The translations under genes were made by a program, and so were the position numbers. The notes beneath the pieces were generated by a model that did no database searches, was not told the DNA's origin, and saw nothing but the letters and a program-made list of their open reading frames with translations. Shown here in pieces: positions 12,312-15,300 of a stretch of DNA of 64,000 nucleotides; position 1 is the first letter of the stretch; each line of letters opens with the position of its first letter. Where the stretch lies: the NCBI GenBank assembly GCA_949130485.1, contig OX422195.1, positions 9,185,119-9,249,118 on the forward strand, given 5' to 3'. This DNA is from Agelas oroides (taxonomy: Eukaryota > Porifera > Demospongiae > Agelasida > Agelasidae).

Positions 12312-15300
12312 ATGTCTAATGCGTCTGAAAATAGCCTCGGCCAGGGAAATTGGAAGCCTAAGCGCAGGAACGCCGTGAGGCACCGGCAGGTGGAGGAGAT
12401 CAAGGGCCACAAGTTTGTACTCAACTATTTCAAATCTTTCACCTTCTGTGGCCACTGCAGTCGCTTCCTCTGGTGAGAGTTTGGTAAACACAGGTGGTAC
12501 AAGTGCCTACAAGTGCCTGCACGCCCAGTGTTTACGGGTCATTGCATGAGTAGTGATCATAATCTACGGCTATAGCTTGACTGTAAACGAATAATATGAT
12601 TGTGGCCATTATTGCATGATGATATGGATCTATGGGTGGCGCAATGCTGGCATCTGTTAGTAATGATCCTCGCATTTTGAAGGAAGGGAGAGATTCTGTG
12701 ACAGTTTAATGACACCATATTTGCACACACCCACACACACTATGCAGGGGTGTGACAGGGCCGCAGGGCTACAAGTGTCTTTGTAAGTGTTTCTTGTGCA
12801 TTGTTAGCTGTGATAGTCCATGTGATGGTATGTCCCTCCCTTCCAGTATGTGACTTTGTAACACACAAACGGTGCCTGGAGTATGTGGCCTTCATCTGTC
12901 CTGGCACGAGTCTCCCGGATGGCCTGGTGAGGAGTCAGCATGTTGAACCAGCATTCACATACGTTGCCAAGTAGTAATACAGCTTAGTCTCCATATCTAA
13001 ACGGTGCATAGCATTCCATAGTGAAAGGTGTTCCTGTGGTTTATTTCTCAAATGTTTACTGCTCCATGTTTCAGTCATATTTGACCCATTTTCTGCCTTG
13101 AAGAATGTGGTAAAAATTTCATTTAATTTACCAAAGTTTCACACCTAGTTGATTATGCATCATTGAAAGCATTAGAACATGATGTGCATCCTGAACACAG
13201 CTACAAACCCTATCTTTGTAGGAACTGTATATTGATAGACACTTCACATTCTTCAGGAACCGATCCCACACAAGTTTAAGACAACCAACTATCTTAGCCC
13301 AACCTGGTGCGACCATTGTGGCAGCCTGCTCTATGGCCTCATGCGGCAGGGCGTCCAGTGCACAGACTGTGGCACGAACGTCCACCATCGCTGCCAGCAG
13401 CTGGTGCCCAAGTCCTGTGGCACTGACCATGTGGAGCGGAGGGGAAGGATTCGAGTCACTTTTGGTGTAAATCAACTGGACGACAACTGCAAACGTATCA
13501 ACATTTATGGTATGTGCTGGCCTCATACCGTGACGTGTTTCTTCATTTATGGTATGTGCTGGCCTCATACCATGACGTGTTTCTTCATTTATGGTATGTG
13601 CTGGCCTCATACCATGACGTGTTTCTTCATTCATGGTATGTGCTGGCCTCATACCGTGACGTGTTTCTTCGTTCATGGTATGTGCTGGCCTCATACCATG
13701 ACGTGTTTCTTCGTTTATGGTATGTGCTGGCCTCATACCATGACGTGTTTCTTCATTCATGGTATGTGCTGGCCTCATACCATGATGTGTTTCTTCATTC
13801 ATGGTATGTGCTGGCCTCATACCATGACGTGTTTCTTCATTTATGGTATGTGCTGGCCTCATACCATGACGTGTTTCTTCATTCATGGTATGTGCTGGCC
13901 TCATACCATGACGTGTTTCTTCATTCATGGTATGTGCTGGCCTCATACCATGACGTGTTTCTTCATTTATGGTATGTGCTGGCCTCATACCATGACGTGT
14001 TTCTTCATTCATGGTATGTGCTGGCCTCATACCATGACGTGTTTCTTCATTTATGGTATGTGCTGGCCTCATACCATGATGTGTTTCTTCATTCATGGTA
14101 TGTGCTGGCCTCATACCATGACGTGTTTCTTCATTTATGGTATGTGCTGGCCTCATACCATGACGTGTTTCTTCATTCATGGTATGTGCTGGCCTCATAC
14201 CATGACGTGTTTCTTCATTTATGGTATGTGCTGGCCTCATACCATGACGTGTTTCTTCATTCATGGTATGTGCTGGCCTCATACCATGACGTGTTTCTTC
14301 ATTTATGGTATGTGCTGGCCTCATACCATGACGTGTTTCTTCATTCATGGTATGTGCTGGCCTCATACCATGATGTGTTTCTTCGTTTATGGTATGTGCT
14401 GGCCTCATACCATGACGTGTTTCTTCATTCATGGTATGTGCTGGCCTCATACCATGATGTGTTTCTTCGCACTACTAAGCTAGTTAGAGGAGGTTGCATT
14501 CTAACGTCCTTTCTCCATGCATGCACGCAGTTCATGAGTGTCGTAATCTTCCTCCAATGGACGCAAACGGTCTTGCGGACCCCTATGTGAAGCTCTCCCT
14601 GCACCCGGGAGGCAGTTCCTCCTTGAAACAAAAGACAGAGAAGAAGACGAAAGACCTGAACCCAGTCTTTGATGAGAACTTTTTCTTGTAAGTTCTGTCT
14701 CCTACCACATTATGCATGCTCACTAGACAGTGTCCCTGTTGCACATTCAGCGACGTGACAGACGAAATGGCTGACAGTCGTGTGCTGTTAGAAGTGTGGG
14801 ATTGGGACCGCTACACGGCTAATGACTTTATCGGAGGATTCTCGATTCGTGTGGGTGAGATTGTTCAGTCTTGTCTGGAGGTGGAGAGTCTTGAGAGCTG
14901 GTATAAACTACTTGATGAGAAACAGATGAAGACCAAGTTTGAGAGGATCCTGGCAGATGAGGACGCACAAAAGGTAAGCTACTGAGTGGTGCATAGCTGT
15001 GATGAGGGTGACTGGGACGTATAGGTTGTTGAGAGGAATTTGTTTATTAGTCATTAATCAAAAAACTGTCCTGGTGACTATCTGACTGCCTCCCACACAT
15101 AGTTGATTGAAGAGTTCCGCCGGGCCACTCTGTCAGCCAAGGCCAAGGGTGAGTTCACTGAGAGTGTACATCTACGGAAAGGATCAGAGCTGGTCCCAGA
15201 ATCTCATGGACTGCCCAAGATGCGACTGGAGGACTTTAACCTTCTAGTTGTACTGGGGAAAGGAAGCTTTGGCAAGGTATGCCTCCATCTTCATACCCAG

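What the first reader, a model, noticed from the sequence alone, without database searches (positions are those of the whole stretch)
13503..14468. PKC intron array repeats its own 5' splice site 23 times, in frame and stop-free
The 42-bp array begins in the last 7 nt of exon 4 and runs through the donor, so each of 23 units carries the exon end plus GTATGT. 42 nt is 14 codons with no stop in the PKC frame (units read [14 protein letters not shown] or [14 protein letters not shown]). Use of any copy as donor would add n x 14 residues to the C2 domain between RINIY and VHECRNL. Copy number could thus tune splicing, or protein length near the Ca2+-binding loops.
Basis: partly seen in the sequence, partly recalled or inferred. 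Interest (0 to 1): 0.82.

Follow-up and report, generated by a model that had tools for sequence, protein, structure and literature searches.

The report
Repeat array duplicates PKC splice donor
In what looks like a sponge genome, a 42-base stretch holding the start-of-intron signal of a protein kinase C gene is repeated 23 times in a row, offering the splicing machinery 23 identical cut sites; related sequences show a short intron without the array, and only RNA data can tell whether the extra sites are used.

Summary
A 42-bp array of 23 units (13502/13503-14468) starts in the last 7 nt of PKC exon 4. Every unit carries the same ATG|GTATGT donor at 13510+42n (n = 0-22), in the PKC frame and stop-free; no AG occurs inside. 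A 13-exon model confirms donor 13510 and acceptor 14530. I found this unit as an array nowhere else in the 259-Mb genome.

New here: relatives carry a short intron without the array (P0102, P0031), so the array is a recent minisatellite expansion of the donor region. The last donor leaves a 97-nt intron, as a one-unit intron would; the first keeps exon 4 at 253 nt. Exon definition predicts donor 0, intron definition donor 22.

I found no sign of selection for tuning: all four variable columns are nonsynonymous, an in-frame open unit has chance about 0.18, and arrays of this donor motif are not enriched (251 vs 236 control matches). The kind is known (human IFI6/G1P3, Turri 1995, seen through citing papers). 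Best reading: passenger minisatellite, donor 0 dominant, some leak. RNA is decisive and was not available.

The parts
12312..17538 (+). Classical-type PKC gene, 13 coding exons and 12 introns; 17538 is the last base matched by relative P0087, the stop codon lies just beyond
   Evidence: Exon model, tblastn with P0087, Pfam C1 x2, C2, kinase, PKC C-terminal
13257..13509 (+). Exon 4 (253 nt); ends ...CGTATCAACATTTATG
13502..14468 (+). 42-bp minisatellite, 23 units; the first 7-8 bases are exonic
13510..14530 (+). Intron 4 (1021 nt, phase 1), longest of the gene's 12 introns
13507..13515 (+). First donor, ATG|GTATGT; identical copies every 42 bp (intron base 1 at 13510+42n, n = 0-22)
14431..14439 (+). 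Last donor (n = 22, intron base 1 at 14434); leaves a 97-nt intron
13547..13575 (+). Example of the per-unit hairpin (unit 1), 10-bp stem that includes most of the donor
   Evidence: biological role not shown
14500..14505 (+). TCTAAC, candidate branch point (inferred from sequence only)
   Evidence: Sequence read; not tested
14529..14530 (+). Acceptor AG of intron 4
14531..14687 (+). Exon 5, begins within the VHECRNL codons of C2

Best explanation
A lineage-specific minisatellite that captured a splice donor. In an ancestor, intron 4 of this classical PKC gene was short and began ATG|GTATG. A 42-bp segment made of the last 7 exon bases, the donor and the following intron bases was duplicated in tandem and grew to 23 units (the short array-free intron in relatives is shown; the growth mechanism, slippage or unequal exchange, is inferred). 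Each unit brought a complete and equally strong donor (shown) but no acceptor (shown). Most transcripts probably still use donor 0 at 13510, because exon 4 is then recognised at its normal 253 nt and C2 stays intact, and the array leaves with the intron (inferred). Downstream donors probably leak at a low level, giving in-frame isoforms longer by multiples of 14 residues (inferred). The array is mainly a passenger, tolerated partly because the unit is 3n and open, so leak does not shift the frame (inferred).
For: 23 of 23 donors identical, no AG in the array. Donor score 9.04, second of the gene's 12 in a leave-one-out matrix (small sample). P0102 reads from exon 4 through a 132-nt array-free intron that begins with the unit's own GMCWP codons into exon 5; its back-translated intron fits the window intron collapsed to one unit (score 103.4 against 78.2 +/- 4.6, maximum 87.3, in 60 shuffles of the core). 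P0031 also reads through an array-free intron. 62 of 65 relatives covering the junction have no insert, among them four full-length proteins 73-77% identical. Exon-defined minigenes with two identical strong donors used the upstream one exclusively (PMC9225289 section 8). No close second locus in the genome.
Against: No RNA was seen, so donor choice is inference. Intron 4 reduced to 97 nt by the last donor fits the size range of the gene's other introns (63-489 nt), and short-intron events in human favour the downstream donor (PMC9225289 section 6), which would predict donor 22. The human rules may not hold in this animal. P0058 and P0060 also carry inserts at or near this point (35 and 7 residues); I did not establish whether they are real.
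Confidence: 0.6

Rival explanations
1. Intron-definition splicing: the donor nearest the acceptor (14434, intron 97 nt) or several late donors are used, so much of the PKC carries up to 308 extra in-frame residues in C2, or this allele is a hypomorph.
For: The last donor leaves the same 97-nt intron that a one-unit intron would have; most introns of the gene are short; human competing donors of near-equal strength in short introns favour the downstream one.
Against: A 14 to 308-residue insert at a point where 62 of 65 relatives have none, with no close second gene, should be selected against (inference); the resulting exon would be up to 1177 nt.
Confidence: 0.2
2. A used ladder: many donors share usage, giving a family of PKC isoforms in 14-residue steps, with copy number setting the mixture.
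For: 23 equal donors in frame; human IFI6 precedent in which two downstream repeat units serve as donors and three mRNAs are made (PMC4526556 passage citing Turri 1995).
Against: No sign of constraint on the peptide (4 of 4 variable columns nonsynonymous); frame property has chance about 0.18; arrays of the TGGTATGT motif not enriched; array absent from relatives P0102 and P0031.
Confidence: 0.15
3. Hairpin regulation: each unit folds the donor into a 10-bp stem, so RNA folding hides surplus donors from U1 and keeps splicing at one edge of the array.
For: The stem is complete in 23 of 23 units (230 of 230 pairs). An 84-nt dimer folds at -35.4 kcal/mol, z -6.86, 0 of 200 shuffles as stable.
Against: A single unit is only mildly unusual (5 and 4 of 200 shuffles as stable for the two units tested), and tandem copying amplifies any fold. 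10 of 20 possible stem transitions keep a pair anyway. Predicted accessibility of array donors overlaps that of the gene's other 11 donors, and in most settings the first and last donors are hidden more than the inner ones, which does not favour an edge.
Confidence: 0.05

Closest known systems
Human IFI6 (G1P3, 6-16) minisatellite providing multiple splice donor sites (Turri, Cuin and Porter 1995; paper not held; seen only as cited in PMC4526556, PMC2572611, PMC3618361, PMC2915984)
   Same: A tandem array at an exon-intron junction whose units each hold a donor; in IFI6 two downstream units are used and three mRNAs are made (passage in PMC4526556).
   Different: Use of the extra donors is shown there and untested here. 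Here the unit is 42 bp with 23 identical donors, in a conserved kinase domain of a probable sponge. (The IFI6 unit is 12 nt by recall, from no call.)
Internal tandem repeats at exon-intron boundaries of human segmental-duplication genes (PMC2812944, passages seen)
   Same: Repeats at an exon-intron boundary that can change splicing.
   Different: Those cases compare recent paralogues and report novel introns from cryptic sites; here the authentic donor itself is multiplied in a gene without a close second copy.
Competing 5' splice sites of equal strength (PMC9225289, passages and sections 6 and 8 read)
   Same: Equal donors compete for one acceptor; the choice depends on exon or intron definition.
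   Different: Human pairs and two-donor minigenes there; here 23 natural identical donors at fixed 42-nt spacing.

Membership tests
Donor-bearing minisatellite (IFI6/G1P3 kind) | Tandem array spans an exon-intron junction | tested here: met
   Array 13502-14468 overlaps exon 4 by 7-8 bases and runs through donor 13510
Donor-bearing minisatellite (IFI6/G1P3 kind) | Repeat units each carry a donor consensus | tested here: met
   23 of 23 units ATG|GTATGT
Donor-bearing minisatellite (IFI6/G1P3 kind) | More than one unit is used as donor in mRNA | not testable with these tools
   No RNA data at hand; no array-containing protein listed (candidate lengths limited to 0.55-1.75 times the query)
Donor-bearing minisatellite (IFI6/G1P3 kind) | Copy number varies between individuals | not testable with these tools
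   One assembly only; one locus in it
Classical protein kinase C | Two C1 stretches, then C2, kinase and C-terminal domains | tested here: met
   Pfam on the spliced protein, all above cut-off; C2 matches solved PKC alpha, beta and gamma
Introner-like or transposon-derived intron | Similar copies dispersed in the genome | tested here: not met
   Exact 21-mer only in this array (23 of 23), six sites elsewhere with 2 mismatches; a 4-unit DNA query matched only this array (that search skips simple repeats and very common words)

The most novel reading that the evidence does not exclude
A natural 23-fold donor array turns the one close classical-PKC locus of a probable sponge into a length-variable kinase: spliceosomes choose among identical donors, so the isoform spread (0 to 308 extra C2 residues in steps of 14) is set by repeat copy number and by whether exon 4 is recognised by exon or by intron definition, and it differs between individuals.
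Probability: 0.12. Interest if true: 0.75.

Novelty: new member of a known kind. Interest (0 to 1): 0.42.

Why it matters
Because the repeat takes in the real donor, the first donor keeps the original exon while the last donor keeps a short, ancestral-like intron. All 23 sites are identical and evenly spaced, so junction counts would read out directly whether exon definition or intron definition picks splice sites in this animal, with nothing engineered. It also adds a case, with array-free relatives for comparison, of a minisatellite capturing a splice site in a conserved signalling gene. If it is only a passenger, it still illustrates how a 3n, stop-free unit may let such an array survive.

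Tried and rejected
Rejected or left weak: (1) Mobile or introner origin: the unit was found as an array only here. Of the six two-mismatch sites elsewhere I read 300 bp of flank on each side for all six and ran TRF on three (L023, L024, L025); none of those arrays covers the site. (2) Enrichment of donor-bearing arrays: TGGTATGT triplets gave 144+107 matches against 101+135 for the reversed control (overlapping match rows, not arrays). (3) Coding selection on the repeat peptide: four of four variable columns nonsynonymous, chance 0.28. (4) Hairpin sequestration as the key (third rival). (5) A buffering paralogue: query exon 4 to the kinase start (269 aa) gave 33 matches; the four at 93-100% are this gene, the others 31-63% over parts of the query.

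Not answered: a second pattern search (AGGTAAGT triplets) failed at every attempt. P0102 differs from the window by one residue in the exon parts that can be compared, so it may even be another allele or a sister species; I cannot tell. P0102's intron holds extra sequence relative to the one-unit form (132 against 97 nt), so the exact pre-expansion sequence is not known. The P0031 alignment to the one-unit intron had no shuffle control. In P0101 and P0106 the frame leaves the exon and stops or diverges, so absence of an array there is not shown beyond those few residues. Codon choices compatible with P0102 gave unit folding energies from -2.7 to -11.6 kcal/mol (128 combinations), so whether the hairpin predates the array is open.

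Full report
What is there. The window lies in a 259-Mb assembly of 141 contigs. The gene is a classical-type protein kinase C on the + strand. Thirteen exons give a continuous 678-aa protein with two C1 stretches, C2, kinase and PKC C-terminal domains. It is 73-77% identical to four full-length relatives, P0086 to P0089; P0088 is named Halichondria panicea and P0089 Suberites domuncula, so the organism is probably a demosponge. Exon 4 is 13257-13509, exon 5 is 14531-14687. Intron 4 is 1021 nt, phase 1; the other 11 introns are 63-489 nt.

The array. TRF places a 42-bp array at 13502-14468 with 23.0 copies. All 23 units from 13503 carry ATG|GTATGT, intron base 1 at 13510+42n; the first seven bases of unit 0 are the last seven of exon 4. 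Four of 42 columns vary (A/G at 0, T/C at 3, A/G at 27, C/T at 31, counting from 0); three of these are CpG-type transitions (read). There is no AG in the array, so no internal acceptor. The frame is open from 13239 to 14480 and closes just after the array. The donor scores 9.04 in a leave-one-out matrix from the gene's 12 donors, second highest; that matrix is small.

Is it more than chance? The array is; its frame is weak evidence of anything. P(14 open codons) is 0.53 and one period in three is 3n, together about 0.18; two of three forward frames are open. Capturing the donor is no great coincidence either: a 42-bp segment overlapping a 97-nt intron contains the donor about 30% of the time (arithmetic). 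The window has 48 merged arrays of period 10 or more over 13% of its bases. Genome-wide, TGGTATGT triplets at 20-50-bp gaps gave 251 match rows against 236 for the reversed control, so arrays of this motif are not enriched. A second motif could not be tested.

Where it came from. Protein searches turned up reading frames from relatives. P0102 (ENA, contig 6772 bp) matches the window from MRQGVQC to [10 protein letters not shown] without a change, then reads on through QYCDTFPHLNWGRGGCISSLSSGVEGRVHSNVVSPCMHT into [14 protein letters not shown]: an intron of 44 codons, 132 nt, itself 3n and stop-free, without the array. P0031 reads RINIYGMSHNSFLHK and on through another array-free intron with a CA-rich stretch. 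P0101 ends after RINIYGMC and P0106 leaves the exon as RINIYSMFLH; these two show only the intron's start. The back-translated P0102 intron fits the window intron collapsed to one unit: 103.4 against 78.2 +/- 4.6, maximum 87.3, in 60 shuffles of the core. The unit is therefore the old start of this intron, and the array is an expansion in the window's lineage, or in one allele of it. Searches with exon 4 plus the whole array and with exon 4 plus the first units listed no array-containing protein; they see only proteins of 0.55-1.75 times the query length.

What it most likely does. Shown: 23 equal donors, one acceptor, frame kept, array-free introns in relatives, no other close match in the genome to a 269-aa query. 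Inferred: which donor is used. Carranza et al. 2022 (PMC9225289; passages and sections 6 and 8 read) report that near-equal human donors are chosen upstream under exon definition and downstream under intron definition, and that exon-defined minigenes with two identical strong donors used the upstream one exclusively. Here donor 0 keeps exon 4 at 253 nt and donor 22 leaves a 97-nt intron, so the two rules make opposite predictions. I favour donor 0 because 62 of the 65 fetched relatives that cover this point in one alignment (of 108 fetched) have no insert; the exceptions are P0102 (its intron read through), P0058 (35 residues) and P0060 (7 residues). The insertion point aligns inside KLTVVI-LEAKNL of synaptotagmin C2B, about ten residues before the first loop aspartate (strand and loop naming recalled), so a large insert should harm C2.

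RNA structure. Each unit folds into a hairpin whose 10-bp stem includes most of the donor (-10.9 and -10.5 kcal/mol for two units; 5 and 4 of 200 shuffles as stable); a dimer folds at -35.4 kcal/mol, 0 of 200 shuffles. All 230 stem pairs over 23 units are standard. Predicted donor accessibility overlaps that of the gene's other 11 donors, and the order of first, inner and last donors changes with the folding window. I do not rest the explanation on it.

What is known. Turri et al. 1995 described a minisatellite that provides multiple donor sites in a human interferon-induced transcript. The paper is not held; I saw its title in the reference lists of four papers, and a passage in PMC4526556 saying that two downstream repeat units of IFI6 serve as donors, giving three mRNAs. 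PMC2812944 (passages) reports tandem repeats at exon-intron boundaries of human genes changing splicing. Literature searches for donor-bearing arrays showed no sponge or PKC case in the listings; the library holds open-licence papers only, and most listed papers were not opened.

Verdict. Functional tuning is possible but unsupported. The value of the locus is as a natural test of splice-site choice. Interest 0.42.

Noticed in passing
16404-16546: In the same PKC gene a 21-bp pyrimidine array (6.8 copies) runs flush to the acceptor AG of intron 10 (AG at 16545-16546), so it forms the whole pyrimidine tract.
   Followed up: partly
29113-29202: On the minus strand a 35-bp array (2.5 copies) ends one base from a probable acceptor AG (29113-29114). 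The next downstream exon matches Pfam Telomere_reg-2 (E 3e-19), so the gene looks like TELO2; exon borders were read by eye.
   Followed up: partly
13965-14468: Column 3 alternates T,C strictly through units 11-22, which suggests late growth of the array in 84-bp steps; T at column 31 falls at units 6, 13, 20 and 22.
   Followed up: no
P0102 (relative, ENA contig of 6772 bp): This relative's intron 4 is 132 nt, 3n and stop-free, so full retention would also stay in frame.
   Followed up: no
P0058 (Takifugu flavidus PKC alpha): Has a 35-residue insert at nearly the same point of C2, possibly a misread intron at a conserved intron position.
   Followed up: no
L023 and L024 (other chromosomes): The string GGCCTCATACC / GGCCTCGTACC, close to the unit's centre, occurs near inverted copies of itself there, possibly a dispersed short inverted-repeat element.
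   Followed up: no
G000:C1:1277093-1348262: An array with the 46-bp unit TGGTATGTAGGTTTGTACCCC... recurs at several places about 17 kb apart, as if a larger unit of that size is itself repeated.
   Followed up: no
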